A stretch of 48,337 nt of DNA from assembly GCA_016191335.1 (NCBI GenBank), contig JACPOW010000039.1:24783-73119 (forward strand), written 5' to 3'. The notes under the pieces are model-generated. The model was not told where the DNA came from. It saw nothing but the letters and a program-made list of their open reading frames with translations, and searched no databases. A program made the translations under genes and the position numbers. Shown piece by piece: positions 8,703 through 47,480 of this stretch (positions are counted from its first letter, which is position 1; the number at the start of each line of letters is the position of its first letter). This stretch comes from Elusimicrobiota bacterium. Lineage in GTDB: Bacteria > Elusimicrobiota > Elusimicrobia > UBA1565 > UBA9628.

Positions 8703-8839
8703 TGAAGGAGCCTTATTGTAGCAAACGCGACCGAGCCATGCGTCCTTTCCGCGCTCCGGAACCCTAGGGACTAGGACAGGGTCGGGGGTGGGCCCAATGG
8801 CCCATGCCGGCGGGTCCGGCCTGATGCATAATTGGAAGG

Positions 8840-10183
8840 ATGAAACGAACGACGGCCGGAATGCTCGCGGCGCTGCTCCTCGTCCCCTCCCTTCGGGCCC
8901 AGAACGTGCGGGTCAACGGGGCCTTCGTCCCGACCACCGCGGCGCCCATCGTCACGGGCCTCGGCTCGCCGGTGGCCATATCCCCTCTCGCCATGACGCC
9001 GCTGTCGGCCGCGTCGCTCGTGCCGACGCTGGCCGCGCCGGCCCTGTCCCCCGCTTTCGCGCTGCAGCCCGCCATCACGCCGGTGCCGGTGGGCGCGCTC
9101 GCCATCGCCCAGCCCGCGGCGGCGCTTCCCGCCGCGGCCAAGGCCGCCCCCCGCGGCGAGCCCGAGAGCGCGAAGACGCCCGTCAAGGCCGCGACCCCGG
9201 TCGACGGCTGGGCGAGCCGCTTCAATTTCCAGCCCTCCGGCCAGGTCTTCGACGGCTCGCGCGCGATCCAGGACGAGGCCGGCGCCACCTTCCAGGCCGT
9301 GCCCAAGGGCCAGGGCGCGGTCCGCGTCCACCTCGTCGAGCGCGCGCCGCTCGCCGCCCAGAAGCCCGTCTCGGGGACCGAGGGGCTGACCGGCAAGGCG
9401 CTCCTCGACGCCCTGAACCAGATCTCCGCCAGGAACCACAAGGAACGCTCCTACAACGAAGCCTCCGACTTCATGTTCGCCAAGGCCGACCACGTGATCA
9501 TCAACGGCGTGAGCGGCGTCGTCGACGCGTACTCGGGCATCTTCGTGCCCGGCACCAGCAAGGAAGGCGGAGACTACCCCGAGCAGGGCGATCCCAACGA
9601 CGACGGCTACAACGACAAGGCGGGCATGAACGTCGAGCACACCTGGCCGCAGTCGCTGTTCAACAAGGCCCTGCCGATGCGCTCCGACCTGCACCACCTG
9701 ATGGCGACCTTCATGCACCCGAACTCGATCCGCGGCCACATGCCCTTCGGCGTCGTCACGGGCAACGCCGACTACGAGAACAAGGCCGGCGCCAAGCGCG
9801 GCAACGGCGTCTTCGAGCCCCCGGACGCGGTCAAGGGACGCGTCGCCCGCGGCCTGCTCTACTTCTACTCGCGCTACAAGGATTCGCGCATGTTCGGCCG
9901 CACCTCGGTCGTGTTCTGGAACCAGCAGGTCGAGCTCATGATGGAGTGGAACCGCCGCTTCCCGCCCGACGCCTTCGAGGCGCGGCGCAACGACCTCGTC
10001 GAGGGCTGGCAGGGCAACCGCAACCCGTTCATCGACGACTACACCTTGGCCGACCGCGTCGGCGCCGACGCCTTCCGCGCCGGCAACGGGCCGTCGCGCG
10101 GCGCGGACGCCGCGAGCTTCACGCCGTCGAGCCGGGGCTCCTCGAGCCGGCGCCCGTCGGGCCGCGGCTACTCCAGACGCTGA
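8840..10183 (+). CDS. Secreted endonuclease I (EndA/NucM family)
   Basis: This 447-residue protein begins with a signal peptide (MKRTTAGMLAALLLVPSLRAQ), then an Ala/Pro/Val-rich leader to about residue 115, then an endonuclease I domain (about 185-400). The metal and catalytic signature is clear: NVEHTWPQSLF with the general-base His, followed by DLHHL and HPNSIRGHMPFG. The family cuts DNA non-specifically outside the cytoplasm for nutrient recovery or biofilm turnover. The last 30 residues are a Ser/Arg-rich basic tail that may bind DNA or the cell surface. GGAAGG precedes the ATG, and a CATAAT box (8827-8832) lies 7 bases upstream. Its 3' end overlaps the convergent MFS gene by 65 bases. 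Confidence 0.9.
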   Translation: MKRTTAGMLAALLLVPSLRAQNVRVNGAFVPTTAAPIVTGLGSPVAISPLAMTPLSAASLVPTLAAPALSPAFALQPAITPVPVGALAIAQPAAALPAAAKAAPRGEPESAKTPVKAATPVDGWASRFNFQPSGQVFDGSRAIQDEAGATFQAVPKGQGAVRVHLVERAPLAAQKPVSGTEGLTGKALLDALNQISARNHKERSYNEASDFMFAKADHVIINGVSGVVDAYSGIFVPGTSKEGGDYPEQGDPNDDGYNDKAGMNVEHTWPQSLFNKALPMRSDLHHLMATFMHPNSIRGHMPFGVVTGNADYENKAGAKRGNGVFEPPDAVKGRVARGLLYFYSRYKDSRMFGRTSVVFWNQQVELMMEWNRRFPPDAFEARRNDLVEGWQGNRNPFIDDYTLADRVGADAFRAGNGPSRGADAASFTPSSRGSSSRRPSGRGYSRR

Positions 10184-11327
10184 ACGGCAGCAGCACCGCC
10201 GCCGCCGCCGCGCACGCCGCGCCGAAGTAGAAGGGCGCCGCGGGCGATATCCGCGTCCACATCAGCCCGGCGAGCGCGCTCGCCGTGAACCCCAGCACCC
10301 CCGCCGCGCCCTGGAACACGCCCTGCGCCACGCCGCGGTTCCCGGCGTCGCTCGCGTCGGCGACCGCCGCGCGGAACGAGCCCTCGATCAGCGCCGCCTG
10401 CAGGCCGTACAGCGCGAACAGCGGCCACAGGGCCTGCGCGGTCGTCGCGCGCGCGAAGCCGAGGTAGCACAGGGCGTAGACGCCCATGCCCGCGGCCACC
10501 GTCAGCCTCCGGCCGACGCGGTCGGCGACGTGCCCGATCGCCGTCGCGCAGCTCGCGTTGACGACGTTGAACAGGACGTAGGCGAGGATGACCGCCGTCG
10601 CGCTCAGCCCGGCGTCGCGGCCCTTGAGCAGGACGAACGAGTCGGACGAGTTGCCCAGCGCGAAGAGGCCGTACACCGCGAGGAAGCGCCAGAACTTGGG
10701 CGGGAGCGGCGTCGGCGGGACCCGCTCGGGCGACGGCGCCTTCCGGGGGGCCTCGCGCTCGCGCACGAACAGGACGAGCACGAGCACCGCGGCGAAGGCG
10801 GGAAGGCCCGCCCAGAGGAAGACCGAGCGATAGGAGGCGCCGGAGCTCAGCAGCCACAGCCCGATCAGCGGCCCCGCGACGGCTCCCGCCGTGTCCATCG
10901 CGCGGTGGAGGCCGAACGCCTTGCCCAGGTGCTGCTTGTCCGTGGACGAGGCGATCAGCGCGTCGCGCGCGGCGCCGCGCAGCCCCTTGCCCGTCCGGTC
11001 GGCGAAGCGGGCGACGAGCAGCCCCGGCCAGCCGGCCGCCAGCGCCAGCCCCGGCTTGGCCAGGGCGGACAAGGTGTAGCCGAAGACGACCGTCGGCTTG
11101 CGCGCGCCCGCCCGGTCGCTCCACCAGCCCCCGACGCCGCGGAAGACGCTGGCCGCGAGCTCGGCGGAGCCCTCCACGATCCCGACCGCCGTCGGCGGCG
11201 CGCCCAGCACCGCGGTCATGTACAGGGGCAGCAGCGGCGCGATCATCTCGCCGGCGATGTCGGCCAGGAAGCTGACCGCCCCCATCCAGTAGACGTTGCG
11301 GCCGACCCCTTTGACCATGGGAAGCAT
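10119..11327 (-). CDS. Major facilitator superfamily transporter
   Basis: This 402-residue protein is hydrophobic throughout, with about 12 membrane segments. The loop 2-3 signature region reads GGWWSDRAGARKP, and a second similar loop is HVADRVGRRL at the start of the C-terminal half, as in MFS carriers. A typical drug or metabolite antiporter is likely; the substrate cannot be read from sequence. Residues ADRTGKGLRGAARDALIASS resemble a subgroup of bacterial MFS proteins with this loop. Two starts are possible (11327, or Met-4 at 11318). It diverges from the FKBP gene; the two -10-like boxes overlap around 11344-11350. The 3' end runs 65 bases into the endonuclease gene. Confidence 0.85.
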   Translation of the reverse strand: MLPMVKGVGRNVYWMGAVSFLADIAGEMIAPLLPLYMTAVLGAPPTAVGIVEGSAELAASVFRGVGGWWSDRAGARKPTVVFGYTLSALAKPGLALAAGWPGLLVARFADRTGKGLRGAARDALIASSTDKQHLGKAFGLHRAMDTAGAVAGPLIGLWLLSSGASYRSVFLWAGLPAFAAVLVLVLFVREREAPRKAPSPERVPPTPLPPKFWRFLAVYGLFALGNSSDSFVLLKGRDAGLSATAVILAYVLFNVVNASCATAIGHVADRVGRRLTVAAGMGVYALCYLGFARATTAQALWPLFALYGLQAALIEGSFRAAVADASDAGNRGVAQGVFQGAAGVLGFTASALAGLMWTRISPAAPFYFGAACAAAAAVLLPFSVWSSRGPTGAGSRSPGSTA

Positions 11328-11375
11328 TCTAGTATTGATGTGCTATCATACGCCGATTTCTCCAGGAGAACTTCC

Positions 11376-20798: not shown

Positions 20799-20809
20799 GG
20801 AGCGCCACC

Positions 20810-28369: not shown

Positions 28370-29043
28370 GCGCGGTTGACCGCGAGAAAGATCGTGTGGC
28401 GCTCGTTGCCGCCGTCTTCCGAGGAGTTCACGAGCTTCTCCTCGACGTCGAAGCCCGCCTTGCGCAGGCGCATGCCGAAGCCCTTGTCGGGCGTGGACGA
28501 CCAGATCGCCAGGATGCCCCCGGGGCGCAGGGCCGTGTAGGCGCTGGCTAGGCCCTCCTGGGAGTACAGCCAGTTGTTCGAGTCGCGGGTCAGGCCCTCG
28601 GGGCCGTTGTCCACGTCGAGCAGGATGCCGTCGAACTCGGCGAGCTCGGTCTGCAGGCTCAGCGCCACGTCCTGGAGGCGGACCTCGACGCGGGGATCGT
28701 CGAGCGGGCGGCCGGCCAGGTGCGCGAGCGGGCCTTTGTTCCATTCCAGCACGGCGGGCATCAGCTCGGCCACGACGACCTTCCCTTTAGGCCCCAGCTC
28801 CTTGAGCGCCGCCGCCAAGGTGTAGCCCATGCCCAGGCCGCCGATCAGGATCCTCGCCTCCGGCAGATGCGAGAGCTTCGAACAGACGAGCTGGGCGAGG
28901 TCGTCCTCGGACTTGTGGATCTCGCTGCTCATCAGCTCGGTGTCCTGCACCCAGATCGTGAAGACGCCGTCCTTCCGGGAGAGGCGCAAGGTCGCGCCCT
29001 CGCCTGGGATGCGGACGCCGCCGAGCTCGAAGGTATCGCCCAT
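28366..29043 (-). CDS. Spermidine-synthase-fold protein (SAM-binding-like)
   Basis: This 225-residue protein has the class I methyltransferase-like fold of the spermine/spermidine synthase superfamily: motif I ILIGGLGMGYTLAAAL, motif II acidic strand KVVVAELMPAVLEW, then DGILLDVDNGPEGLT and LRPGGILAIWSS. Small stand-alone members like this are common, but their substrate is not settled; an aminopropyl or methyl transferase role is inferred only from the fold. ATG at 29043 is preceded by TACACT (29052-29057) at 8 bases. It lies downstream of the EVE gene on the same strand. Confidence 0.75.
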   Translation of the reverse strand: MGDTFELGGVRIPGEGATLRLSRKDGVFTIWVQDTELMSSEIHKSEDDLAQLVCSKLSHLPEARILIGGLGMGYTLAAALKELGPKGKVVVAELMPAVLEWNKGPLAHLAGRPLDDPRVEVRLQDVALSLQTELAEFDGILLDVDNGPEGLTRDSNNWLYSQEGLASAYTALRPGGILAIWSSTPDKGFGMRLRKAGFDVEEKLVNSSEDGGNERHTIFLAVNRA

Positions 29044-29051
29044 GGTCCCCT

Positions 29052-29057
29052 AGTGTA
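29052..29057 (-). promoter_or_regulatory. -10-like box for leaderless spermidine-synthase-like gene
   Basis: TACACT lies 8 bases before the ATG. The predicted start of transcription is within 2-3 bases of the start codon. A -35 match is poor (TTCAAC at a 19-base spacer, inside the neighbouring palindrome). Confidence 0.4.
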
Positions 29058-29555: not shown

Positions 29556-30901
29556 CTCTTGACGAGCAGGTCCCGGAGGTCCGCGAGGCGGAAGTAGGAC
29601 CACACCCACGCCTTCCAGAAGGCGCCGGCGGCGCGGCCGCGCAGGCGCGACCAGCCCGTCGGCGCCGGCGGCGCGAAGGAGTCCTTCGACAGCGCGGCGA
29701 CGGCCGCGGGGTCGGGGGAGATCACGAGGTAGCCCTCGGCGAAGCTGTCCCGCACGACCTCGGGGGAAGGCGGCAAGGTCGAGGCGAAGCCCTCGATGTC
29801 CTTGAGGCGGTTCTCCGTCCAGTTGCGGTCGAGCGCGGCGGCGAACGGCTTGATCGCGGCGGTGCCGCCGTCCTCGGTGACGAGCTGGTAGTCGATGTCG
29901 CTCGAGGGTCCGGATTGGCCGATCGAGTAGGAGCCGAGCAGGGCCATCGCGATCACGCGGCGGCCGCGGGGAAGGTCCTTGTTGACCTCGAGGATCGAGG
30001 CGACGACGGCGGCGCGGAAGGACGCCAGGACGAGGGGCTGGCGCGTCGCGCGGTGCTCGTCGATCCTCGCGAGCTGCTCGTCGGTGAGCATCGCGTCGAT
30101 CTTCGCGGCGAGCAGCTCCGGGGCCATCGTGGGCAGCTCGTAGAAGACGCCGAAGGCCTTCTTGCGGTAGTAGCTGGGGCGCTCGAGCGGCACGACCTTG
30201 TCCACGCGGTCGAGGTAGCTCAGGAAGGACGCGCGCGCCTCGGGGTCCTTCGGGAAGTAGCGCTCCCAGAGCTTGACCGCCTCGCGGCGGATGGTCGCGC
30301 GGTCGGCGACCTGGGGGCCGGCGGTGCGCACGACGCCCGAGTACGCCTTAGTGCGCCAGTCGATCCACATGCCCTCGAGGTCGCGCACGGCGCGCGGCCT
30401 GCCCGCGGTGTCGGCCTTCTGCTGAAGGACCATCGAGCGCAGCAGGACGGAGCGCGAGCCGAGGAAGAACTTCGTCGTCTCCCAATGGGAGCGGCGCAGC
30501 AAAGCGCGCGCCTGCTCCGCGGGGACGGCGCCGGTCCACAGGGCCTCGGCGTCCGGGGCCTCGGCGAGAGCGGCGATCTGCTCGCGGGCCGAGGCCGCGG
30601 GGACGGCGGCGGGCGCCGGAGCGGCGGGACGCGCCGGCTCGGGAGCGGCGGCGGCGGGACGGGCCGCGGCGAGGGCGGCGGGCAGCGCGACGGCGGGGGC
30701 CGGCGTGAAGGCCGGCGCCGAGAGCGGCGTGGAGAGCACGGCGTTCAGCGACGGCGCGATCGACGGCGCGGAAACGGCCGGCGCCGCGAGGACGGGCATG
30801 CTCGTCTGCAGACCGACCCGCGCGCCGCGCATCTGAGCCGAGGCGAACGAGGGGACCAACGCGAGGCAAAGGACCGGCAGGAAGGAGAGGCGTTTCGCCA
30901 T
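29552..30901 (-). CDS. Exported protein with nucleotidyltransferase-like motif
   Basis: This 449-residue protein has a signal peptide (MAKRLSFLPVLCLALVPSFASAQ), an Ala/Pro/Ser-rich leader to about residue 105, then a helical region and, near residue 325, ALLGSYSIGQSGPSSDIDYQLV. This reads as the GS...G...SDIDY active-site motif of the nucleotidyltransferase superfamily (GlnD/DUF294-like), with the two catalytic acids. Such enzymes normally use cytoplasmic NTPs, so an exported version is odd. A basic hydrophobic C-terminus (WKAWVWSYFRLADLRDLLVKR) may associate with membrane. The gene has its own strong promoter and is coupled to the EVE gene. Function is unknown. Confidence 0.7.
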   Translation of the reverse strand: MAKRLSFLPVLCLALVPSFASAQMRGARVGLQTSMPVLAAPAVSAPSIAPSLNAVLSTPLSAPAFTPAPAVALPAALAAARPAAAAPEPARPAAPAPAAVPAASAREQIAALAEAPDAEALWTGAVPAEQARALLRRSHWETTKFFLGSRSVLLRSMVLQQKADTAGRPRAVRDLEGMWIDWRTKAYSGVVRTAGPQVADRATIRREAVKLWERYFPKDPEARASFLSYLDRVDKVVPLERPSYYRKKAFGVFYELPTMAPELLAAKIDAMLTDEQLARIDEHRATRQPLVLASFRAAVVASILEVNKDLPRGRRVIAMALLGSYSIGQSGPSSDIDYQLVTEDGGTAAIKPFAAALDRNWTENRLKDIEGFASTLPPSPEVVRDSFAEGYLVISPDPAAVAALSKDSFAPPAPTGWSRLRGRAAGAFWKAWVWSYFRLADLRDLLVKR

Positions 30902-30907
30902 TCCTCT

Positions 30908-30936
30908 ATTATGGATGAATACGGCGCCCGCGTCAG
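30908..30936 (-). promoter_or_regulatory. Promoter for leaderless exported nucleotidyltransferase-like gene
   Basis: On the minus strand CTGACG (30931-30936), a 17-base spacer and CATAAT (30908-30913) are followed by 6 bases and the ATG at 30901. Confidence 0.6.
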
Positions 30937-30969: not shown

Positions 30970-31821
30970 CTAAAAGGGCAGGAGGCGGCGCACGCGGCCC
31001 TCGATGAGGAACAGGGCCGTGTCCTCGCCCTTCGCGTGGGTGGCGGCGAGGTTGGCCTCGTCGACGGCGCGGTGCAGGGCGTTCATGTACTGGCGCATGA
31101 CGCTCGAGGAGGCGCGCACGAGCTCGAGGCGCTCGCCGAAAGGGCCTCCCTGCCGCGCGGCCATCGCGTCCCAGTAGCCGCGCACGCGCTCGAGCAGGGG
31201 CTCCATGCCCTTGCTGCGGCCGGGGAAGGTCCAGAACTTGCCGGGATGGCGCGTCTTGTAGCGTCCGGGGGAGGTGGCGCGCAGCAGCCTGACCTTCGTG
31301 AGGCGCTCGAGGGCGTCGGCCGCGGCCTTCGGCGGGCAGCCCAGGCGGCCGGCGATGTCCTTCGGGGTCCAGGAGCCGTCGTCGTTGAGCAGGAGCTCCG
31401 AGGTCCAGTACGAGGTCTCGTCGTGCGAGACGGCCGTGAACTGGTCGATGTTCATGTGCATCAGGTGCTCGCGCTTGAGGCGGTCGAAGCCGCCCTCGGC
31501 GAGCGTCGGCGAGACCGTCGGCACCGACTTGCTCACCGAGCCGACGATGAGCTCGTAGGCCTCCGGCGAGCCGAGCACGTCGAGGAGGTAGGCGCGGAAC
31601 AGGGCGCGCGCGCCGTCGGCGGCGGGGGCCAGGCGCAGGGCCTTGAGGATCGCGCCGAAGGCCTCCGCGCGCGGGGCCTTGGCGCCCTTCTCGAGGCGCA
31701 GGTAATGGACGTAGGTGAAGCCGAAGTGCCGGCGGCCGCCGTTGCGGTGATAGAAGCGGTACGCCGACGGGAATCCGGCCTCGCGGCGCAGGGACAGCAG
31801 GGCTTCGGAGAAAGCGCTCAT
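30970..31821 (-). CDS. HTH transcriptional regulator, TIGR02147/DUF4423-like
   Basis: This 283-residue protein has an N-terminal helix-turn-helix-like segment (YVHYLRLEKGAKAPRAEAFGAILKALRL), then a central winged-helix-like segment (WTPKDIAGRLGCPPKAAADALERLTKVRLLR) and a helical C-terminus (ERVRGYWDAMA..., SSSVMRQYMNALHRAVDEA). This layout resembles the TIGR02147/DUF4423 family described from Fibrobacter and other deep-branching bacteria. Target genes are unknown. TATGAT (31829-31834) ends 7 bases before the ATG. Confidence 0.6.
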   Translation of the reverse strand: MSAFSEALLSLRREAGFPSAYRFYHRNGGRRHFGFTYVHYLRLEKGAKAPRAEAFGAILKALRLAPAADGARALFRAYLLDVLGSPEAYELIVGSVSKSVPTVSPTLAEGGFDRLKREHLMHMNIDQFTAVSHDETSYWTSELLLNDDGSWTPKDIAGRLGCPPKAAADALERLTKVRLLRATSPGRYKTRHPGKFWTFPGRSKGMEPLLERVRGYWDAMAARQGGPFGERLELVRASSSVMRQYMNALHRAVDEANLAATHAKGEDTALFLIEGRVRRLLPF

Positions 31822-31828
31822 GCGCTAC

Positions 31829-31834
31829 ATCATA
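31829..31834 (-). promoter_or_regulatory. -10-like box for leaderless regulator
   Basis: TATGAT lies 7 bases before the ATG at 31821. No -35 match is seen at normal spacing and there is no Shine-Dalgarno sequence. Confidence 0.4.
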
Positions 31835-31848: not shown

Positions 31849-32376
31849 CTAGAGGACGCGCGGCGCGCCGCCGTCGTCCCAGGCGACCGGGGTCAGGCCC
31901 AGGGCGCGGGCGGAGGCGGCCATGCGCTCGAGATGGGGGCCGAGGAGCTCGGGGATGAGCAGGACCGCGTCGGCGCCGCCCGCCCGGGCGCGCTCGAGCT
32001 GCCAGGAGTCGACCACGTAGTCCATCATCGCGAGCAGGGCGTCGGGGACCGCCGCGCGGACCGCGTCGAGGTGGGCGTAATCGCCGGCGTGGAAGTTGCG
32101 CTCGGTCCAGACGCCGAGGCCGGTGGCGCCGCGGCCCACGGCCGACACGGCGCGCCGGGCGGCGTACTCCGCGGTGACCTCGCCGCCGGAGACGAGAAGG
32201 CCGATGCCCGGCGTGGCGAAGCGCAGGTCCATCACGATCCCGGACAGGGCCGGCTTGAAGTCCCGGGGCGTCCGGGCGTATCCGGGCAGCGCCCTCAAGG
32301 CCTCGACGGGCTGCTGGGCCTTGAGCTTCTCGACGCGCCGCGCGGCGTGCGCGGCCCTACCGGCCAGCTCGCTCAT
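31849..32376 (-). CDS. Truncated TrpC-like (indole-glycerol-phosphate synthase fold) protein
   Basis: This 175-residue protein follows the first half of TrpC: FKPALSG, IVMDLRFATPGIG (where TrpC has an E-K-SPS motif), YAARRAVSAVGRGATGLGVWTERNFHAGDYAHLDAVR split by strands, WQLERARAGGADAVLLIPELLG and a strand AWDDGG (where TrpC has its EVH). TrpC is normally about 260 residues; the last four strands are missing. The catalytic Glu and Lys of the EIK motif read Asp and Arg, and the KDF lysine reads MMDYV. It therefore looks inactive as an indole-glycerol-phosphate synthase. The frame is intact and has its own promoter-like box, so it is probably expressed. TIM-barrel fold assignment is inference. 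Confidence 0.6.
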   Translation of the reverse strand: MSELAGRAAHAARRVEKLKAQQPVEALRALPGYARTPRDFKPALSGIVMDLRFATPGIGLLVSGGEVTAEYAARRAVSAVGRGATGLGVWTERNFHAGDYAHLDAVRAAVPDALLAMMDYVVDSWQLERARAGGADAVLLIPELLGPHLERMAASARALGLTPVAWDDGGAPRVL

Positions 32377-32382
32377 CGGCCC

Positions 32383-32388
32383 ATCATA
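32383..32388 (-). promoter_or_regulatory. -10-like box for leaderless TrpC-like gene
   Basis: TATGAT lies 6 bases before the ATG at 32376, inside GC-rich surroundings, with no Shine-Dalgarno sequence. Confidence 0.4.
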
Positions 32389-32398: not shown

Positions 32399-32614
32399 CT
32401 ATTCGGTCTCGAAGCAGAACTCCATGTCCTCGACGGCCTGCACGACGAGGCCCGCCTGCGCGGGGAAGGAGAACTTGTGAGCCTTGTCCAGGACGAAGTC
32501 CCGGGAGTCCCCCTCGATCGTCGCCCAGCCTTTCCCGGAGACGCCGCGCACGGTCAGCTTCCCGGAGACGGACGGAGTCCACATCTGCCCTTTCGCCAGA
32601 GTTAAATTGGTCAT
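32399..32614 (-). CDS. DUF2917-like small protein
   Basis: This 71-residue protein resembles DUF2917: LTLAKGQMWTP, LTVRGVSGKGWATIEGDSRDFVLDKAHKF, then VVQAVEDMEF. The family is a small beta-rich cupin-like fold of unknown function. An ATG at 32620 would add two residues, but a TACACT box (32621-32626) touches it, so transcription should begin at the second ATG (32614), which I chose. Confidence 0.65.
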   Translation of the reverse strand: MTNLTLAKGQMWTPSVSGKLTVRGVSGKGWATIEGDSRDFVLDKAHKFSFPAQAGLVVQAVEDMEFCFETE

Positions 32615-32620
32615 GCCCAT

Positions 32621-32626
32621 AGTGTA
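32621..32626 (-). promoter_or_regulatory. -10-like box for leaderless DUF2917 gene
   Basis: TACACT on the minus strand, 6 bases before the ATG at 32614. The same hexamer serves the CPXCG, kinase and spermidine-synthase-like genes. Confidence 0.4.
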
Positions 32627-32752: not shown

Positions 32753-32758
32753 TATAAT
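32753..32758 (+). promoter_or_regulatory. Perfect -10 box for leaderless MocR gene
   Basis: TATAAT, a perfect -10 hexamer in a GC-rich stretch, lies 7 bases before the ATG at 32766. There is no Shine-Dalgarno sequence. Confidence 0.5.
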
Positions 32759-32765
32759 CATCGTC

Positions 32766-34190
32766 ATGCCCGCGGCCACCACCCTCTATCAGACCCTCGC
32801 CGGCGAGATCGCCGGCCTCATCGACGCCGGCACCTTGCGCCCCGGCGACCGCGTCCCCTCGGTGCGGGAGCTGTCGCGCGCCAAGTCGGCCAGCGTCTCC
32901 TCGGTGCTGTCGGCTTACCGCGTGCTCGAGGACCGCGGCCTGATCGAGTCCCGTCCGCAGTCCGGCTATTACGTCCGCACCGCCCCTCTCGGCCCGGCCG
33001 AGCCCGCGCGCAGCGAGCCCTCGCCCGCCGCGGCCTCCGTCGAGATCGGCGAGTTCTCCGTGCGCTACACGCACGACACGCACGATCCCCGGTTCGTCCA
33101 GATCGGGGCCGCGCTCCCGCACCCCGACCTCCTGCCCACGGCCAAGCTGGCGCGCAGCATCGCCCGGATGGGGCGCCTGCGGCGCCTTCAGAGCAACTCC
33201 TACGACCTCCCCGTCGGCTGCTTCGTCCTGCGCGAGCAGGTCGCCAAGCGCATGTTCAAGGCCGGCTTCGCCGTCGGCCCCGAGGACGTCATCGCGACGA
33301 CCGGCGCGCAGGAGGCGCTGAACCTGGCCCTGCACGCGGTCTGCTCCCCGGGAGACATCGTGGCCGTCGAGTCCCCCGCCTTCTTCGGCACGCTCCAGGC
33401 CCTCGAGATGCACGGCCTCAAGATCGTGGAGATCGCCAGCGAGGCGCGCGACGGCATGTGCCTCGACGCCCTCAAGCGCGCGCTCGGGCGCCACAAGATC
33501 AAGGCCGTGGTGGCGACGCCGACCTTCTCGAACCCCCTCGGCGCCCTGATGCCCGAGGCGAACAAGAAGGCTCTCGTCGAGATGCTCGCGGCCCGGGGCA
33601 TCCCGCTCATCGACGACGACGTGTACGGCGACCTCCCGCACGACGGCCTCGACCGGCCCAAGGCGGCGAAGGCCTACGACCGCGACGGCGGCGTGATCTA
33701 CTGCTCCTCGGTCTCGAAGACGATGGCCCCGGGCTACCGCGTCGGCTGGATCGTCCCCGGGCGCTGGCGCGCGCAGGTCGAGCGTTTCAAGATGGTGTCC
33801 AACGTCTCGACGGCCTGCCTCCCCCAGCTCGCGGTCGCCGACATCCTCGCCAACGGCGGCTACGACCGTCACCTGCGCCGCATCCGCGCCGCCTACGCCC
33901 GCACCACCGCCTTGATGCGCCACGCCGTCGCCGAGAGCTTCCCGGCGGGCACGCGCCTCTCGAACCCGCGCGGCGGCTTCGTGCTGTGGGCCGAGCTCCC
34001 GGGCAAGGCCGACACGCTCGCGCTGTACGACCGCGCCCGTCGCGCGGGCGTGATCATGGCGCCGGGGCCGTTGTTCTCCGCGACGGGGCGCTTCCGCAAC
34101 GCGATGCGCCTCAACTGCTCGCACTGGAACCCGCAGATCGAGCGCGCCGTCGCCTTGCTCGGGCGCCTGGCCGCCGAATCGGCGAGATGA
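32766..34190 (+). CDS. MocR-family regulator (GntR HTH plus aminotransferase domain)
   Basis: This 474-residue protein fuses a GntR winged helix (1-75: YQTLAGEIAGLIDAGTLRPGDRVPSVRELSR, in two helices, then SRPQSGYYVR) to a fold type I aminotransferase domain (about 100-470) with TGAQEALNLAL, the PLP-contacting VVATPTFSNPLG, DDDVYGDL and the lysine in CSSVSKTMAPGYRVGW. MocR proteins use PLP or an amino-acid adduct as effector and regulate neighbours such as vitamin B6, GABA or transporter genes. The next gene, an EamA exporter overlapping as ATGA, is the obvious target. A dyad upstream may be its operator. Confidence 0.92.
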   Translation: MPAATTLYQTLAGEIAGLIDAGTLRPGDRVPSVRELSRAKSASVSSVLSAYRVLEDRGLIESRPQSGYYVRTAPLGPAEPARSEPSPAAASVEIGEFSVRYTHDTHDPRFVQIGAALPHPDLLPTAKLARSIARMGRLRRLQSNSYDLPVGCFVLREQVAKRMFKAGFAVGPEDVIATTGAQEALNLALHAVCSPGDIVAVESPAFFGTLQALEMHGLKIVEIASEARDGMCLDALKRALGRHKIKAVVATPTFSNPLGALMPEANKKALVEMLAARGIPLIDDDVYGDLPHDGLDRPKAAKAYDRDGGVIYCSSVSKTMAPGYRVGWIVPGRWRAQVERFKMVSNVSTACLPQLAVADILANGGYDRHLRRIRAAYARTTALMRHAVAESFPAGTRLSNPRGGFVLWAELPGKADTLALYDRARRAGVIMAPGPLFSATGRFRNAMRLNCSHWNPQIERAVALLGRLAAESAR

Positions 34191-35082: not shown

Positions 35083-35088
35083 TATACT
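35060..35088 (+). promoter_or_regulatory. Candidate promoter for leaderless radical SAM gene
   Basis: TTGCGG, 17 bases, TATACT, then 7 bases to the ATG at 35096. This supports 35096 as the start over an in-frame TTG at 35078. Confidence 0.45.
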
Positions 35089-35095
35089 CCTCCTT

Positions 35096-37234
35096 ATGGA
35101 GGCCTCCGAACCGTTCCGGGTCGAACTGGCGACGATCTGCGACGGCTCCGAATGCGACTTCCGCTTCCCCCTCGCCGCGCTTAAGGCCTACGCGGACGCG
35201 CTGCTGGCCGCGTCGCCGCGCCCGGTGGAGATCTCGATCGCCGAGGTCGACGCGGCGTCCGCCGACGAGGCCGTCCGCGGGATCGCGGCGCGGTCTCCCC
35301 ATCTGGCCGGCTTCTCCTGCTTCGTCGGCAATCGCGCGGCCACGGAACGGGCGGTCCGCCGGCTCAAGCGCGCGGCGCCGGGGATACCGGTCGTGATCGG
35401 CGGCCCCGAGGTCTACGGCGACCCCGCCGGGATGCTGCGCGGATCCGCGGCCGACTTCGTGGTCTTCGGGGAGGGAGAGGAGACCTTCACCGAGATGTGC
35501 CGCCGCATGTCGGCGGGGGCCGGCGTCGAAGACCTCCTCGGGCTGGGGTTCCGCGACGGCCCCCGCGCGGCGATCAACGGGCCGCGCCCGTTCATCGACC
35601 TCTCGCGGTCGCCCTCGGCCTACCTGGCCGGCCTCATGGAGCCGCGGGGCAAGAGATGGTTCCTGCTCGAGACCGCGCGCGGCTGCCCCTACCGCTGCTC
35701 TTACTGCATGTGGTCCCGCCACAACGGCCGGCGCCTGCGCGCGATCCCCGAGGAGAGGATCCGGGCGGAGGTGCGCCGCTTCGTCGCGCTCGGCGGCGCG
35801 CAGCTCACCTTGGCCGATTCGGACCTCTTCGTCGACCGGGAGCGCGCCAAGCGCATCCTGCGCATCTTCCACGAGGAGGACCCCCGCCACTCCCTCGAGG
35901 TGGAGATCTGCACCGACCCGGCCAACGTGGACGCCGAGCTGGCCCGGCTCGTCGAGAAGAAGGGCCTCGAGATCATCTGCGGCGTGCAGTCCGTCAACCG
36001 CGCGACTTTGCGCGCGGCGGGACGCCCGTACCGCGTGCCGGCCGTCGAGCGCGGCCTGCGCCTGCTGCAGCGTCACGCGCCGTCCGCGGACTTCGCCATG
36101 CAGATCATCCATGGCCTTCCCGGGGACACCCCGCCGGATTACCGCCGGACCCTGGACTGGGCCCTGACCCGGGGCATCGACAGCGTCACGTCCTTCCCGC
36201 TCCAGGTGCTTCCGGGCAGCGTTCTGGCCGAGTCCGGCCGCGCGGCCGGCTTGCAGTGGGAGCCCCGGCCGCCGTACTTGGCGACGAGGACGCGGGAGCT
36301 CTCCCCCGCGGACCTGCGCCGCGCCCGCCGCATGATCTGCGGGGCCTCCTTCCTGCTCTCGCTGCCGCCGCTGCGCCGCCTCCTCGGGAGCCTGGCCCGC
36401 TCCCCGGCCGGCGGGGGCTCGATCACGGGCCTCTGCGACGGTCTTCTGGAGCATCTCGAGTCCCGCGGCGCCTACGATTTCTCGCGGACCTTCTCCCGCT
36501 TCGAAAAGGAGGCCGGGACCGGACGGGAGCTGCCGCTGAACGGTCATGCGGCGTGGCGGACGACGCCGGAGACGAGCCTGGCCATCCTGCGCGAGGCCGT
36601 CGCCTGGGCCGGCGGACGCCCCGGCGCTCCGGGGCCCGCGGCGCTCGCCCGTCTCGTCGCCGCGGCCGAGGCCCGCGTGCATTGGAGCGTCCTGGCCGCC
36701 GGCCCGGAGTTCGCCCGCCTGTTCGCTCCCCCGGCGCCCGACGGCGCCTCCCTCCTGGTCTGCTGGGCCGGCGACGTGCGCCGGATGCCTCCGCCCCCCG
36801 GCGTGACCGCGGGCGTGCTGTTCTCCGAGGACTGGAAAGACGCGCGCCCGGACCGCGCGCCCTTCCCGGTCAGGGACGTGGCGCGCGTCCACGGCCGTCT
36901 CACCCGCGTCGAGACCGACGGCTGGGGTGAGGGCTACGGGCGCGTCGTCCTGGGCGACGTCTGCGGCTCGGTCGCCCCGGCGGCCCGGCGGGATTGGCTG
37001 GCGCGCCTGCGCCGGGCCTGCGTGCCCGGCGCCCGCCTGACGATCTGCGACGACCTGCTGGGCTGGCCGCCGAGCGGGGAGCTGAACGGCCCGCCGCCCC
37101 CCTCCGGGCCGCGAGCCCTGAAAGCTCTGCTGGCCGACGCCGGGTCCGCGGGCTGGACCTTGGAGGCGCCGCCGGGCGTCGCCTTCGAGACGGGCGGGGT
37201 GAGCTGGCGTCTGATCGAGGCCCGGAACGCCTAG
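35096..37234 (+). CDS. B12-binding-like radical SAM protein with extra C-terminal region
   Basis: This 712-residue protein has a B12-binding-like Rossmann domain (about 20-150: AGFSCFVGNRAATERAV, VVIGGPEVYGD, FVVFGEGEETF) and a radical SAM barrel with CPYRCSYC (Cys-197, 201, 204) for the [4Fe-4S] cluster. This is the layout of BchE-like B12 radical SAM proteins, which do methylations and cyclisations, but the DxHxxG cobalamin motif is not obvious, so B12 may not be bound. Residues from about 400 to 712 are unlike known domains; the end reads somewhat like a decayed methyltransferase (VVLGDVCGSV, LARLRRACVPGARLTICDD). The product is unknown. Its stop overlaps trpG on the other strand in CTAG. 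Confidence 0.82.
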   Translation: MEASEPFRVELATICDGSECDFRFPLAALKAYADALLAASPRPVEISIAEVDAASADEAVRGIAARSPHLAGFSCFVGNRAATERAVRRLKRAAPGIPVVIGGPEVYGDPAGMLRGSAADFVVFGEGEETFTEMCRRMSAGAGVEDLLGLGFRDGPRAAINGPRPFIDLSRSPSAYLAGLMEPRGKRWFLLETARGCPYRCSYCMWSRHNGRRLRAIPEERIRAEVRRFVALGGAQLTLADSDLFVDRERAKRILRIFHEEDPRHSLEVEICTDPANVDAELARLVEKKGLEIICGVQSVNRATLRAAGRPYRVPAVERGLRLLQRHAPSADFAMQIIHGLPGDTPPDYRRTLDWALTRGIDSVTSFPLQVLPGSVLAESGRAAGLQWEPRPPYLATRTRELSPADLRRARRMICGASFLLSLPPLRRLLGSLARSPAGGGSITGLCDGLLEHLESRGAYDFSRTFSRFEKEAGTGRELPLNGHAAWRTTPETSLAILREAVAWAGGRPGAPGPAALARLVAAAEARVHWSVLAAGPEFARLFAPPAPDGASLLVCWAGDVRRMPPPPGVTAGVLFSEDWKDARPDRAPFPVRDVARVHGRLTRVETDGWGEGYGRVVLGDVCGSVAPAARRDWLARLRRACVPGARLTICDDLLGWPPSGELNGPPPPSGPRALKALLADAGSAGWTLEAPPGVAFETGGVSWRLIEARNA

Positions 37235-39164: not shown

Positions 39165-39169
39165 CTCAG

Positions 39170-39185: not shown

Positions 39186-39195
39186 TCGCCGTCGA

Positions 39196-39211: not shown

Positions 39212-39212
39212 C

Positions 39213-43153: not shown

Positions 43154-44439
43154 GCGCCGCATCGCCTCGCGTTGAAGTCGTCATAAAACGTCGGATACGA
43201 GATTTCCGCACATGAAGCGCCCAACACCCCGCTCTCGCCCGACGCGAGCACCCCGGCGATGTATCCCGTCATCGCCAGCCGGTGGTCTCCCAGCGAATCC
43301 ACCTCGGCGGGTTTGAGCGTTTTGACGCCCGTGATGAGCAAGTCGTCGTTCTCGACCCGCGCCGAGGCCCCAAAGCTCGTTAATAGAGCCGCGATGCCCA
43401 TGAGCCGGTCGCTCTCTTTATGACGCAGCTCGCCGAGTCCGTTGAACCGACTTTCCCCCGACGCGAGCGCCGCCGCCAAAGCGAGTATCGGAACCTCGTC
43501 GATCAGCCCCGGTACCTCGTCGGCGGCCACGTTCACGCCGATCAATTCGGAGCACGACACGATCAGATCCTCGACGGATTCCCCGCCCTCTCCGCGCACC
43601 GGCTCGCGGTGGATGTCGGCCCCCATGCGCGCGAGCACGTTCAGATAGCCGGTCCGCGTGGGGTTCGCCCCCACCCCGCGCACCGCGAGCTCGCTGCCCG
43701 GGGCCAAGGTGGCGGCCACGACCCAGAACGCGGCCGAGGACGGGTCCCCGGGGATGAGCACCTTCGTGGCCGTCAGGCGCGAGCCCCCTTCGACCGACAC
43801 CGCGAGGCCGCGCGCGCTCACCGGCACGCCGAAGGCCGCGAGCATGCGCTCGGTGTGGTCGCGGGTGGCGGCGGGCTCGACGACGGTCGTCCGGCCCGAC
43901 GCGTGGAGGCCGGCCAGGAGGACCGCCGATTTGACCTGGGCGCTCGCCATCGGCAGGGCGTACTCGATGCCCTTCAGCGCGCCGCCGGAGACGGTGAGCG
44001 GGGCGGTCCCGCCCTCGGTCAATCCGATCGTCGCGCCCATCGCGCGCAGCGGCTCGGCCACGCGCTTCATGGGGCGGCGCGTCAGGGACTCGTCTCCGAC
44101 GAAACGGGATGCGAACCCGTGGCCGGCGACGACGCCGGCCAAGAGGCGCATCGTCGTGCCGGAGTTGCCAGCGTCGAGGTCCTTGGCCGGGGCGCGGAGC
44201 CCGCCGAGGCCGCGGCCGCGCACGCGCAACGTCGGCGCCGCGCCCGAGATCTCCACTCCGAGAGCCTCCAGGCAGGTCCGCGTCGAGGCCACGTCCGCCC
44301 CCGACGACAGCCCCTCGACGGCGGTCTCGCCCTCGGCCAGGGCGCCGAGGATCAGCGCGCGGTGAGAGACCGACTTGTCGCCCGGCACGCGGACCTCTCC
44401 CTCGAGGCGGCCGCCGCCGGCGACGGACCGGTCCTTCAC
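43150..44439 (-). CDS. aroA: 3-phosphoshikimate 1-carboxyvinyltransferase (EPSP synthase)
   Basis: This 429-residue enzyme transfers enolpyruvyl from PEP to shikimate-3-phosphate. Motifs are VPGDKSVSHRALILGAL, LDAGNSGTTMRLLAGV, the RRPMKRVAEPLRAMGA segment, MASAQVKSAVLLAGL, RHKESDRL and GDHRLAMT. GTG at 44439 overlaps the aroF stop as GTGA and begins just before the first barrel strand, so I chose it. The last 450 bases are less GC-rich than the first part. Confidence 0.95.
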   Translation of the reverse strand: MKDRSVAGGGRLEGEVRVPGDKSVSHRALILGALAEGETAVEGLSSGADVASTRTCLEALGVEISGAAPTLRVRGRGLGGLRAPAKDLDAGNSGTTMRLLAGVVAGHGFASRFVGDESLTRRPMKRVAEPLRAMGATIGLTEGGTAPLTVSGGALKGIEYALPMASAQVKSAVLLAGLHASGRTTVVEPAATRDHTERMLAAFGVPVSARGLAVSVEGGSRLTATKVLIPGDPSSAAFWVVAATLAPGSELAVRGVGANPTRTGYLNVLARMGADIHREPVRGEGGESVEDLIVSCSELIGVNVAADEVPGLIDEVPILALAAALASGESRFNGLGELRHKESDRLMGIAALLTSFGASARVENDDLLITGVKTLKPAEVDSLGDHRLAMTGYIAGVLASGESGVLGASCAEISYPTFYDDFNARRCGA

Positions 44440-45476
44440 CCGCGGCCCTTGAGCGCGGGCGTGGCCATGCCGCGCCCGAGCGCCCCCGCGATCGCGGCGA
44501 GGTCCACCATCAAGGTCGCGAAATCGTCGGGGTGCAAGGCCTGCGGACCGTCGCACAGCGCCTGGTCGGGGCGGTCGTGAACCTCGATCATGACGCCGTG
44601 CGCGCCGGCGGCGACGGCCGCCCGCGCCATCGGCGCGACGCGCGCGCGCACGCCGGTGGCGTGGCTCGGGTCGACGATGATGGGCAGGTGGCTCAGCTCC
44701 TTGACCGCGGGCACCACGTTGAGGTCGAGCGTGTTGCGCGCGTGGTCGGAGAAGGCGCGGATGCCCCGCTCGCATAGAAAAATATTCTTGTTGCCTTCGC
44801 TCAGCAGGTACTCCGCCGACATCAGCCACTCGTCGAGCGTGGCCGACAGGCCGCGCTTGAGCATGACGGGCTTCTTGAGCTGGCCGAGCTCCTTGAGCAG
44901 GGCGAAGTTCTGCATGTTCCGCGCCCCGACCTGCAGGACGTCGGCGAACTCGGCCACGTCTGCCAAGGTGCGCTGGTCCAGGATTTCGGTCACGATGGGC
45001 AGGCCGGTCTCCTTCTTGGCCAGCGCCAGGAGCTGGAGGCCTTTCTTGCCCAATCCCTGGAACGCGTAAGGCGAGGTGCGCGGCTTGAACGCCCCGCCGC
45101 GCAGCATCTGGGCTCCCGCCGCCTTCACGCGCCGCGCGATGCGCAGCATCTGCTCCTCGGTCTCCACCGCGCACGGCCCCGCGATCACGACGAGGCCGGG
45201 GCCGCCGATGCCGTAAGGGCCGACGTTCACGACGGTATCTTCATGCTTAAAGTCGCGCCCGGCGAGCTTGTACGACTTCGACACGCGCACCGCCTCGCGC
45301 ACTCCGGGCATGGCGTCGAACAAATGAGGATCGAGCGCGCCGGAGTTCCCGGTGATGCCCACGGCGACGCTCAATTTACCGGGGATCACATGCGGCTTCA
45401 GCTTCAGCGCCTTTACCTTCGCCAAAACGTCCTTGAGCTGTTTTTTCGTGTGGTCCGACTGCATCAGGATCAGCAT
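44436..45476 (-). CDS. aroF: DAHP synthase, type I beta with N-terminal regulatory domain
   Basis: This 346-residue enzyme joins PEP and erythrose-4-phosphate, the first step of the pathway. The catalytic barrel shows IAGPCAVETEEQM, RGGAFKPRTSPYAFQGLG, VMLKRGLSATLDEWL, NIFLCERGIRAF and IIVDPSHATG, with metal ligands Cys, His, Glu and Asp in those segments. The first 70 residues form a ferredoxin-like domain as in Thermotoga DAHP synthase, where it gives feedback inhibition by Tyr or Phe. Its start directly abuts the trpA stop (no gap). Sub-type symbols vary between databases. Confidence 0.93.
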   Translation of the reverse strand: MLILMQSDHTKKQLKDVLAKVKALKLKPHVIPGKLSVAVGITGNSGALDPHLFDAMPGVREAVRVSKSYKLAGRDFKHEDTVVNVGPYGIGGPGLVVIAGPCAVETEEQMLRIARRVKAAGAQMLRGGAFKPRTSPYAFQGLGKKGLQLLALAKKETGLPIVTEILDQRTLADVAEFADVLQVGARNMQNFALLKELGQLKKPVMLKRGLSATLDEWLMSAEYLLSEGNKNIFLCERGIRAFSDHARNTLDLNVVPAVKELSHLPIIVDPSHATGVRARVAPMARAAVAAGAHGVMIEVHDRPDQALCDGPQALHPDDFATLMVDLAAIAGALGRGMATPALKGRG

Positions 45477-46262
45477 CTATATCTCCAAGGCCTTCACTAA
45501 TCTTTTGGCCAAACGCGAAACGTCGCCGGCGCCGGAGGCGCCGGCAAGCACCAGGGCACTTCCGACCACCACGCCGTCGGCATAAGGCGCCAGTTTCCGC
45601 GCCTGCGAAGGCTCCGCCACGCCGAAACCGACCATCAACGGTTTCCCCGTCATTTTTTTGACGTGCGAAATCCGTTGCGCCAGGTTGGGCGCCAGACCTT
45701 TCCGTACTCCGGTCACCCCTTCGCGGCTCACATAATAAACGGCCGTGCCGGAGGCACGGCCGATCTTCGCGAGCCGTCGATCCGTGGTGGTCGGCGAAGC
45801 GAGGGCCACTGATTCGATGCCGTACCGCGCGAGTTCCCCTTCCGTTGCCGTTGATTCTTCGATAGGAAGGTCCACGATCAGGACGGCCGAAACTCCGGAG
45901 CTGCTGCAAAGCCGCGCGAACTGTTTCGTCCCCATGCGCAGGATCGGGTTCAGGTAGGTGAACAGGACGACCGGGATCGTTGCCCCGCCTCTCCTGAGCT
46001 CCTTCACCAACCCCGCGGCCTTCTTCAGCGTCATGCCCTTGGCGAGCGCCCTCTGCCCCGCCGCCTGGATGGCCGGCCCGTCGGCGACGGGATCCGAGAA
46101 CGGCACGCCGACTTCCAGGATGTCCGCCCCCGCCGCGATCAGGGCCCGAGCCGCGCGCAGGCTCCCCGCGTAGGACGGGTCCCCCGCGACGAGGAACGGC
46201 ACGAAACCCGCCCTCCCCGAGGCGCGGCGGTCGCTCAAGGCGCGCGCGAGGCTCACGGGCAT
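45477..46262 (-). CDS. trpA: Tryptophan synthase alpha chain
   Basis: This 261-residue TIM-barrel enzyme splits indole-3-glycerol phosphate into indole and glyceraldehyde-3-phosphate. Motifs are [11 protein letters not shown], the catalytic Glu and Asp in [29 protein letters not shown], and GFGVAEPSQ near the end. Its ATG at 46262 lies inside the end of trpB (10-base overlap), so the two chains are coupled. The distal half of the gene (45477-45960) is less GC-rich than trpB. Confidence 0.95.
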
Positions 46263-47443
46263 AGCGTCCCCAGGTCCTTGTCCCCGCGGCCGGACAGGTT
46301 GACCAGGACCACGCCGTCCTTCTTGAAGCGCTTCCTCGCCTTGATCAGATACGCGATCGCGTGAGAGCTCTCCAGGGCGGGCAAGATGCCCTCGAGCCGG
46401 CAGAGCTCGTGAGCCGCCGCGAGGGCGTCCTTGTCCGACGCGTGGACGTACCTCGCCCGCCCGATGCGCCGCAGCTCGGCATGCTCCGGGCCGACGGCGG
46501 GATAGTCGAGCCCGGCGGAGATGCTGTGAGTCGGCAGGACCTGGCCGTTCGCGTCCTGCAGCAGGTAGGTCCGCGTCCCGTGCAGGACCCCGGGGAAGCC
46601 GCCCGCGAAGCGCGCCGCGTGGCGCCCCGGCGCCATGCCCGTCCCGCCCGCCTCGACGCCGGTCAAAGCCACGGACTTGTCCTTCAAGAACGCGGTGAAT
46701 ATGCCGATGGCGTTGGAGCCTCCGCCGACGCAGGCGATGACCTCGCGCGGCAGGCGCTTCTCCTCCTTCAGGATCTGGGCGCGGGCCTCGACGCCGATCA
46801 CCGTCTGGAAGTCGCGCACCATCGTCGGATACGGGTGCGGGCCCAGGGCCGAGCCGAGGACGTAGAAGGTCTCGCGGCTGTCGGAGGACCAGGCGCGCAG
46901 GGCCTCGCTCGTGGCGTCCTTGAGCGTTCGCGATCCGGAATCGACGGCGACGACCGTGGCCCCCATCATGCGCATGCGCGCCACGTTGGGCGCCTGGCGG
47001 GCCATGTCGTCGGTGCCCATGTACACGACGCAGGGCAGGCCCGCGCGGGCGGCGGCCGCCGCGGCGGCGACGCCGTGCTGGCCCGCGCCCGTCTCGGCGA
47101 TCACGCGCTTCTTGCCCATGCGCCGGGCGAGCAGGACCTGGCCGACGGTGTTGTTGATCTTGTGCGCCCCGGTGTGGGTCAGGTCCTCGCGCTTGAGCCA
47201 GACGCGAAGGCCGAGCTCCTGGCTCAGGCGCCCGGCGAAGGTCAGCGGCGTGGGGCGGCCGACGAAGGTCGCCAGCTCGTGCCCGAGCTCGGCCTTGAAC
47301 CTCGGGTCGCGCCGCGCGGCGGCGTAGGCGGCCTCGAGCTCCCGGAGCGGCTCGATGAGCGTCTCCGGGACGAAGCGACCGCCGAACGGCCCGAACCAAC
47401 CGGGCCGGTTCGCCTTCGGCGAACCGTGCGAGGGGATTTTCAT
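46253..47443 (-). CDS. trpB: Tryptophan synthase beta chain
   Basis: This 396-residue PLP enzyme joins indole and serine to tryptophan. The PLP lysine is in [10 protein letters not shown], catalytic Glu in AETGAGQHG, the phosphate loop is VGGGSNAIG, and the N-terminus has GRFVPETLI typical of TrpB1 that pairs with TrpA. It leads the eleven-gene operon. The -10 box TATCCT ends 8 bases before the ATG and there is no Shine-Dalgarno sequence, so the operon mRNA is probably leaderless and has no room for a trp attenuator. Confidence 0.96.
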
Positions 47444-47451
47444 GGCTCTGA

Positions 47452-47480
47452 AGGATAGCAGACCCCCCCTGGCTTGTCCA
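47452..47480 (-). promoter_or_regulatory. Promoter of the trp-aro operon
   Basis: On the minus strand TGGACA (47475-47480), a 17-base spacer containing a run of seven G, and TATCCT (47452-47457). The predicted start of transcription is 2-4 bases before the trpB ATG. Confidence 0.6.

What the first reader, a model, noticed from the sequence alone, without database searches (positions are those of the whole stretch)
8827..47480. Widespread leaderless-type promoters
At least ten transcription-unit-leading genes have a TANNNT-like or CATAAT box 6-8 nt before the start codon and mostly no Shine-Dalgarno sequence: endonuclease (8827), CPXCG (12923), OmpA lipoprotein (14004), NYN (25932), spermidine-synthase-like (29052), exported nucleotidyltransferase (30908), HTH regulator (31829), TrpC-like (32383), DUF2917 (32621), MocR (32753), radical SAM (35083) and trpB (47452). 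Several also have a -35 box at exactly 17 bases. Operon-internal genes instead use ATGA overlaps. This predicts that leaderless initiation is a normal mode in this lineage, as in Deinococcus or Mycobacterium.
Basis: partly seen in the sequence, partly recalled or inferred. Interest (0 to 1): 0.7.

Follow-up and report, generated by a model that had tools for sequence, protein, structure and literature searches.

The report
Leaderless promoters in an Elusimicrobiota order
In one order of uncultured Elusimicrobiota bacteria, many genes at the head of a transcription unit have their promoter so close to the start codon that the messenger RNA should begin at or next to the start codon, a mode of gene expression known from Deinococcus and Mycobacterium.

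Summary
All 12 boxes exist, 6-8 nt before a start codon. Genome-wide, TANNNT-N6-ATG occurs 422 times, against 119 read backwards and 129 at spacing 15. In 448 kb of the genome the box peaks at spacer 6-7: 63 of 216 transcription-unit-leading genes (control spacers mean 4.2) but 5 of 153 operon-internal genes, which instead show Shine-Dalgarno (SD) sites (55 of 153, control 13.3). Features not selected for emerge: a -35 TTG at 17 nt, an extended -10 TG, a pyrimidine before the start codon. Box and start are conserved in 23 of 26 orthologue pairs. The 16S anti-SD is intact. Best reading: sigma70-type promoters with transcription starting at or within about 2 nt of the AUG, at roughly 37-41% of unit-leading genes here. 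The trait is strong in this order (23 of 28 genomes), patchy and weaker in two other families of the class (10 of 64 and 7 of 36 genomes). Leaderless genes are well known elsewhere; my searches found no report for this phylum. No RNA 5' ends were available, so leaderless mRNA is inferred.

The parts
8827..8842 (+). CATAAT box 8827-8832, spacer 7, ATG at 8840 of endonuclease I family gene (8840-10183)
   Evidence: Pfam PF04231
11316..11331 (-).
   Evidence: Pfam PF07690
12914..12951 (-). -35 TTGACG, 17 nt, TACACT box 12928-12923, spacer 6, ATG at 12916 of CPXCG gene; conserved in G010 and G013
   Evidence: Pfam PF14255
13995..14009 (-). TATCAT box 14009-14004, spacer 6, ATG at 13997 of OmpA-family gene; the box lies inside the longest ORF, which starts at 14015
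   Evidence: Pfam PF00691
25921..25937 (-). TAAAAT box 25937-25932 with TG extension, spacer 8, ATG at 25923 of NYN/YacP-like gene
   Evidence: Pfam PF05991 below its cut-off
29041..29057 (-). TACACT box 29057-29052, spacer 8, ATG at 29043 of a gene with a spermine/spermidine synthase domain; conserved in the one orthologue compared (G015)
30899..30936 (-). -35 CTGACG, 17 nt, CATAAT box 30913-30908, spacer 6, ATG at 30901 of a gene without Pfam match (29552-30901)
31819..31834 (-). TATGAT box 31834-31829 with TG extension, spacer 7, ATG at 31821; box kept in 4 of 5 genomes compared
32374..32388 (-). TATGAT box 32388-32383 with TG extension, spacer 6, ATG at 32376 of a short TrpC-like (IGPS) gene; box kept in 2 of 3 genomes compared
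32612..32626 (-). TACACT box 32626-32621, spacer 6, ATG at 32614 of DUF2917 gene; an in-frame ATG also lies at 32620
32753..32768 (+). TATAAT box 32753-32758, spacer 7, ATG at 32766 of MocR-type (GntR plus aminotransferase) gene; box kept in 2 of 2 genomes compared (G006, G016) while bases next to it differ
35083..35098 (+). TATACT box 35083-35088, spacer 7, ATG at 35096 of B12-binding radical SAM gene
47441..47480 (-). -35 TGGACA (47480-47475), 17 nt, TG-extended TATCCT box 47457-47452, spacer 8, ATG at 47443 of trpB, head of an aromatic amino acid gene cluster; box at spacer 8-9 in 11 of 11 genus genomes read

Best explanation
These are sigma70-type promoters whose -10 box (often TG-extended, with or without a -35 TTG at 17 nt) sits 6-9 nt before the start codon, so that RNA polymerase starts on or within about two bases of the A of the AUG and makes leaderless mRNA. 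Ribosomes would then start on the 5'-terminal AUG without an SD. Downstream genes of the same transcript use SD sites and 4-nt or 1-nt overlaps. Shown by sequence: box, spacing, -35, TG, pyrimidine at -1, conservation, split between leading and internal genes, intact anti-SD. Inferred: the transcription start, the absence of a leader, the mode of ribosome entry. It is a normal mode in this order of Elusimicrobiota, at roughly 37-41% of unit-leading genes in this genome.
For: Whole genome 422 against 119 and 129. Peak at spacer 6-7: own 63 of 216 leading genes (control mean 4.2) and 5 of 153 internal; genus set 66 of 232 (control 3.7); G010 58 of 306 (control 3.1) (the genus set and the G010 set share 8 stretches). 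Unselected features: TTG at spacing 17 in 21 of 129 aligned boxes against 0-5 at the other spacings from 13 to 21, TG extension in 37 of 129; pyrimidine at -1 in 69 of 81 spacer-6 genes against 210 of 395 internal (p 2.8e-8) and 224 of 366 other leading genes (p 2.8e-5). Orthologues keep box and start in 23 of 26 gene-by-genome pairs from 11 genes; in G010, 10 of 10 leading genes whose own copy has a box have one (4 at another in-frame start within 30 codons), against 1 of 7 without. trpB: box in 11 of 11 genus genomes, 0 of 7 genomes of two other families. SD at leading genes 34 of 216 (control 18.6), at internal 55 of 153 (control 13.3). Anti-SD CCTCC intact.
Against: No RNA 5' ends or N-terminal peptides. 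About 100 of 216 leading genes show neither a box at spacer 5-9 nor an SD and stay unexplained. The box is missing in G013 for two of the 11 genes. Spacers of 8-9 would leave a 1-2 nt leader. G010 has a lower share (20-23%). GTG and TTG starts also occur among box-led genes (34 of 179).
Confidence: 0.9

Rival explanations
1. The box is a translation element (an A/T-rich ribosome or S1 site) in a leader made from a promoter further upstream.
For: SD-poor lineages such as Bacteroidetes show A/T-rich signals before the start (passages of PMC5397173, and PMC9581028).
Against: The signal has promoter anatomy: TTG at 17 nt and TG extension, pyrimidine at -1. It is nearly absent from operon-internal genes, which are translated too (5 of 153).
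Confidence: 0.04
2. The promoters are real but the start codons are wrong: true starts lie downstream and the mRNAs have ordinary leaders.
For: Starts were not verified by protein data; 5 of the 12 genes have another in-frame start upstream, and orthologues sometimes use another nearby start (4 of 10).
Against: The peak is tied to the start codon at 1-nt resolution (spacer 6, then 7); 23 of 26 orthologue pairs keep the box before the same start; the OmpA-family protein read from the proposed ATG begins MKRFLPVLLLL, like a signal peptide (judged by eye).
Confidence: 0.03
3. Chance or composition: TANNNT is common and the reader picked matches.
For: Two of the 12 needed a second consensus (CATAAT); the -35 claim holds for 3 of 12. 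Pattern counts alone can mislead: in family f4 spacing 15 is depleted.
Against: Two genome-wide controls and the internal genes, Proteobacteria loci (0 of 160) and one genome each of f4 and f13 without the peak.
Confidence: 0.01
4. Short leaders of about 1-8 nt rather than none: functionally near-leaderless. This overlaps with the best explanation and may hold for part of the genes.
For: Spacers 8-9 make up 42 of 179 boxes, and trpB has 8-9 in 11 of 11 genus genomes.
Against: The commonest spacer is 6 (89 of 179) with C at -1, as expected if the A of ATG is +1.
Confidence: 0.25

Closest known systems
-10-motif-led leaderless genes of Deinococcus-Thermus (PMC12340547, passages seen)
   Same: TANNNT a few bp before the ORF, -35 optional, SD kept for other genes; the same spacer peak appears on a Deinococcus deserti plasmid with my caller (15 of 131 leading genes, control 1.7).
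   Different: Unrelated phylum; no expression data here; the share on my measure is higher here (63 of 216), but the Deinococcus sample is 250 kb of one plasmid.
TA-led leaderless genes of Actinobacteria and others (Zheng et al. 2011, PMC3160421, section 7 and passages seen)
   Same: TANNNT about 12 bp before the start in high-GC genomes; around 20% of genes in Actinobacteria, and by my rough estimate about a fifth here (net about 74 of 369 genes).
   Different: Their named list of bacterial groups with leaderless genes (207 of 953 genomes, one unclassified) does not include Elusimicrobia.
Archaeal split of leaderless leading genes and SD-led distal genes (Sulfolobus, as cited in PMC3160421, passages seen)
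   Same: Same division of labour between first and later genes.
   Different: Bacterial -10/-35 promoters at about -12, not a TA signal near -30.

Membership tests
Leaderless-gene-rich bacterial lineage (TANNNT-led genes) | TANNNT enriched about 12 bp before the start codon, genome-wide | tested here: met
Leaderless-gene-rich bacterial lineage (TANNNT-led genes) | Enrichment mainly at unit-leading genes, SD kept at operon-internal genes | tested here: met
   box 63 of 216 against 5 of 153; SD 34 of 216 (control 18.6) against 55 of 153 (control 13.3)
Leaderless-gene-rich bacterial lineage (TANNNT-led genes) | The box is part of a sigma70-type promoter (-35 at about 17 nt, pyrimidine before an initiating purine) | tested here: met
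   by sequence only
Leaderless-gene-rich bacterial lineage (TANNNT-led genes) | RNA 5' ends at the start codon | not testable with these tools
   no RNA data
Leaderless-gene-rich bacterial lineage (TANNNT-led genes) | Leaderless mRNAs are translated from the 5' AUG | not testable with these tools
   no proteomics or ribosome data
Lineage that lost the SD mechanism (anti-SD altered) | Loss of the CCUCC core at the 16S 3' end | tested here: not met
   CCTCC present at the 16S end in own and the 4 related genomes examined
Canonical SD-led initiation at unit-leading genes | SD clearly above background before leading genes | tested here: not met
   divergent genes 11 of 100 (control 8.0) and 16-39 nt gaps 3 of 26 (control 2.3); weakly met for same-strand genes after 40 nt or more, 20 of 90 (control 8.3)

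The most novel reading that the evidence does not exclude
Within a single phylum, one order has largely replaced SD-led initiation at the heads of transcription units by leaderless initiation, while sampled genomes of other families keep SD-led leading genes. Individual genes switch mode with their position in the operon: trpB is leaderless where it heads the operon (genus) and, in other families, internal with a 4-nt or 1-nt overlap and no promoter box. This would be a separate, comparatively recent and reversible rise of leaderless expression rather than an ancient relic. (Lowered from 0.5 to 0.45 after one search showed patchy weaker signals elsewhere in the class.)
Probability: 0.45. Interest if true: 0.65.

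Novelty: new member of a known kind. Interest (0 to 1): 0.48.

Why it matters
It adds a phylum of mostly uncultured bacteria to those with abundant leaderless-type genes and gives a within-phylum contrast (an order with many, other sampled families with few) in which the evolution of leaderless initiation can be studied. It also matters practically: a gene caller that ignores this signal misplaces starts (4 of the 12 genes in my own calls), which affects signal peptides, promoter prediction and any attempt to express these genes.

Tried and rejected
Class-wide spread. A first reading of the pattern survey (spacing 6 against spacing 15) suggested a broad excess in families f4 and f5 of the same class. 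One search used 149 of the 247 rows; the 98 left out are 40 of f4, 56 of f13, G176 (f20) and G197 (f21). With all 64 f4 and 36 f5 rows and the larger of two controls, 10 of 64 and 7 of 36 genomes have z above 3, ratio at most 1.37 and 1.56. Gene-based, the one f4 genome profiled (G051) has 6 of 87 (control 9.1), but it is not among those ten; the one f5 genome (G185) 10 of 125 (control 4.1). So a weaker leaderless share in parts of f4 and f5 is neither shown nor excluded.

A shoulder at spacers 10-15 in the own genome's divergent genes was not repeated in G010 and is not interpreted. High frequency in gaps of 16-39 nt (12 of 26 own, 15 of 34 genus set) was not repeated in G010 (10 of 40 against 28 of 102 divergent genes).

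Mobile-element origin of the recurring TAGAATC boxes: the flanks of the 8 TAGAATC-N5-ATG sites printed look unrelated by eye.

A same-strand open frame of 100 codons ends 4 nt inside trpB in own (ORF list); my caller did not accept it, it lies against a called gene on the other strand, and frames ending there appear in only 3 of 11 genus genomes, so I do not take it for a gene.

Dropped rows: 17 of 393 called genes have no row (partial, or too near a stretch end), and 7 'edge' rows are outside the class counts; searches count edge rows with the box-led genes. L158 (6.7 kb, G055) was fetched but not profiled. Second-codon A (+4) did not separate box-led from internal genes (49 of 81 against 235 of 395).
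Full report
Identity. The window is part of contig C71 of a 3.66 Mb, 135-contig genome; the window is 68% GC. Genome G019, of the same order, has its 16S at the same contig number, coordinates and score as G030, the genome of locus L068, titled 'Elusimicrobia bacterium CG_4_9_14_3_um_filter_62_55'.

The twelve sites. All 12 boxes are in the sequence: 10 TANNNT and 2 CATAAT, spacers 6, 7 or 8, none with an SD at the usual distance. NYN is below its cut-off, the 'HTH' gene gives only a DUF4423 match below its cut-off, and the 'exported nucleotidyltransferase' has no match. A -35 of at least 4 of 6 at spacing 17 is present in 3 of 12.

Genome-wide test. TANNNT-N6-ATG occurs 201+221 times; read backwards 51+68. 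At spacing 15, which keeps codon phase, 56+73. I wrote a simple codon-usage gene finder that does not look upstream of the start, ran it on the window plus 20 stretches (448 kb, 393 genes) and profiled TANNNT by distance. Spacers 6-7 hold 33 of 100 divergent genes, 18 of 90 same-strand genes after 40 nt or more, 12 of 26 after 16-39 nt and 5 of 153 operon-internal genes; mean counts at control spacers are 2.4, 1.5, 0.3 and 0.3. SD sites show the reverse: divergent 11 of 100 (control 8.0), same-strand 20 of 90 (8.3), 16-39 nt 3 of 26 (2.3), internal 55 of 153 (13.3). A box matrix trained on G010 and applied to the own genome gives a net 37-41% of leading genes with a box at spacer 5-9, depending on threshold; trained on own and applied to G010, 20-23%.

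Promoter anatomy that was not selected for. Aligning 129 boxes of spacer 6-7 from leading genes (own plus genus stretches) brings out TTG with 17 nt to the box (21 cases, 0-5 at other spacings from 13 to 21), a TG one base before the box (37 of 129), and A/C at box positions 4 and 5. A -35 of 4 or more of 6 at 16-18 nt occurs in 34 of 129, against 6% of random window positions. For spacer 6 the base before the start codon is C in 63 of 81, against 167 of 395 internal and 174 of 366 other leading genes; pyrimidine 69 of 81 against 210 of 395 and 224 of 366. RNA polymerase commonly starts about 7 nt after the -10 box, on a purine after a pyrimidine (general knowledge): that is the A of the ATG here.

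Conservation. Of 26 distinct gene-by-genome pairs (11 own leading genes with a box, 9 genomes, protein identity 67-97%; pairs were kept only if the alignment reached the first 12 residues), 23 keep a box at spacer 5-9 before the same start; trpB gives 7 of the 26 with one miss (G024, another family), the other two misses are both in G013. In MocR (32766) and the gene at 10374 of L099 the bases around the box have changed while box and spacing stayed. In G010, 10 of 10 leading genes whose own copy has a box have one (4 at another in-frame start within 30 codons), against 1 of 7 leading genes without; of 26 internal genes without a box in own, 3 have one in G010 (these overlap the pairs). trpB is instructive: 11 of 11 genus genomes with a readable N-terminus have a box 8-9 nt before a start; 0 of 7 genomes of families f2 and f3 do, and in 5 of those 7 (G019, G020, G021, G024, G028) trpB overlaps the frame before it by 4 or 1 nt, as an internal gene.

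Lineage. Against the larger of two controls, 23 of 28 genomes of the order (24 of f1, 4 of f2) show an N6 excess with z above 3; the five others (G137, G201, G226, G242, G256) are 2.0-2.3 Mb genomes of genera g9 and g11 of f1 (numbers). Family f3 was not in that survey. Gene-based, the genus set gives 66 of 232 and G010 58 of 306 leading genes, G128 (another genus) 9 of 38 (control 1.2) and G020 (family f2) 5 of 35 (control 0.7). Outside the order: in f4 10 of 64 and in f5 7 of 36 genomes pass z 3, with ratios up to 1.37 and 1.56, against up to 3.78 in the order. Gene-based, one f4 genome 6 of 87 (control 9.1), one f5 genome 10 of 125 (control 4.1), one f13 genome of another class 9 of 88 (control 10.6); SD sites precede their leading genes in 37 of 87, 55 of 125 and 46 of 88 (controls 6.0, 12.7, 3.3). 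Small samples of G097, G105, G271, G056, G081 and G073 show no clear peak. Other phyla: high-GC proteobacterial loci 0 of 160, acidobacterial loci 11 of 137 (control 2.9) (16 and 14 loci chosen by me from the 80); in 21 other genomes the largest ratio to the larger control is 1.47 (Ramlibacter), against 3.27 here. Positive control: a Deinococcus deserti plasmid, 15 of 131 leading genes (control 1.7), same spacer.

Translation side. The 16S ends GGATCACCTCCTTT in own, and CCTCC is present in the four related genomes examined. So SD initiation is available and used inside operons, with 4-nt overlaps in 63 of 153 and 1-nt overlaps in 21 of 153. How ribosomes enter the leaderless mRNAs is inferred from other bacteria, not tested.

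Literature. Zheng et al. 2011 (PMC3160421; section 7 and passages seen) report leaderless genes in 207 of 953 bacterial genomes and name the groups; Elusimicrobia is not named. PMC12340547 (passages seen) reports experiments showing that TANNNT next to the ORF drives leaderless expression in Deinococcus. PMC9581028 (passages seen) cites 21.6% of bacterial species predicted to use leaderless transcription; I could not see the species list (the original was not held), so Elusimicrobiota genomes may be in it. PMC10783764 (passages seen) lists Elusimicrobia for its anti-SD type. Searches pairing Elusimicrobi with leaderless, with promoter and translation initiation, with Shine-Dalgarno and with transcription start site, and leaderless mRNA with candidate phyla (no paper), listed no paper on leaderless genes in this phylum, judged from titles, abstract starts and the passages of PMC10783764.

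Verdict. The observation and its interpretation stand, for the order. It is a new member of a known kind; the contrast inside the phylum is the most interesting part.

Noticed in passing
window 29084 and 39171; 55 sites in the genome: A perfect palindrome, CTGTTTCCGGAAACAG, occurs at 55 places in this genome, 57 each in G006 and G016, 11-25 in G005, G007, G008 and G015, 1 in G001, and 0 in the other 22 of the 30 genomes searched, G010 included. 10 of 10 copies in the sampled stretches lie outside called genes, 4 of them within about 130 nt upstream of a called start. It looks like a recently spread intergenic palindrome or a protein-binding site.
   Followed up: partly
window 37231-47443, minus strand: An aromatic amino acid gene cluster in one direction: trpB, trpA, DAHP synthase, EPSP synthase, shikimate dehydrogenase, chorismate synthase, shikimate kinase, DHQ synthase, DHQ dehydratase II, then trpE- and trpG-like genes (Pfam), headed by the leaderless-type trpB promoter; the centre of one copy of the palindrome above lies 14 nt before the trpE-like start.
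   Followed up: partly
window 31849-32376, minus strand: A 175-aa TrpC-like protein matching positions 6-161 of the 254-position IGPS profile, with its own leaderless-type promoter next to a regulator-like gene.
   Followed up: no
window 2501-7500: GC falls to 50-56% against 65-76% elsewhere and few genes are called; a 765-aa ORF (4279-6576, minus) has no Pfam match. Possibly a horizontally acquired island.
   Followed up: no
window 48198-48276, minus strand: Group II intron (Rfam RF00029) match just at threshold, 40.4 bits against 40.
   Followed up: no
window about 20770-20810: Inverted repeat TGATAAGA...TCTTATCA just before the called start of the aconitase gene (20810; the longest ORF starts at 20732), seen in the upstream sequence printed; possible operator.
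   Followed up: no
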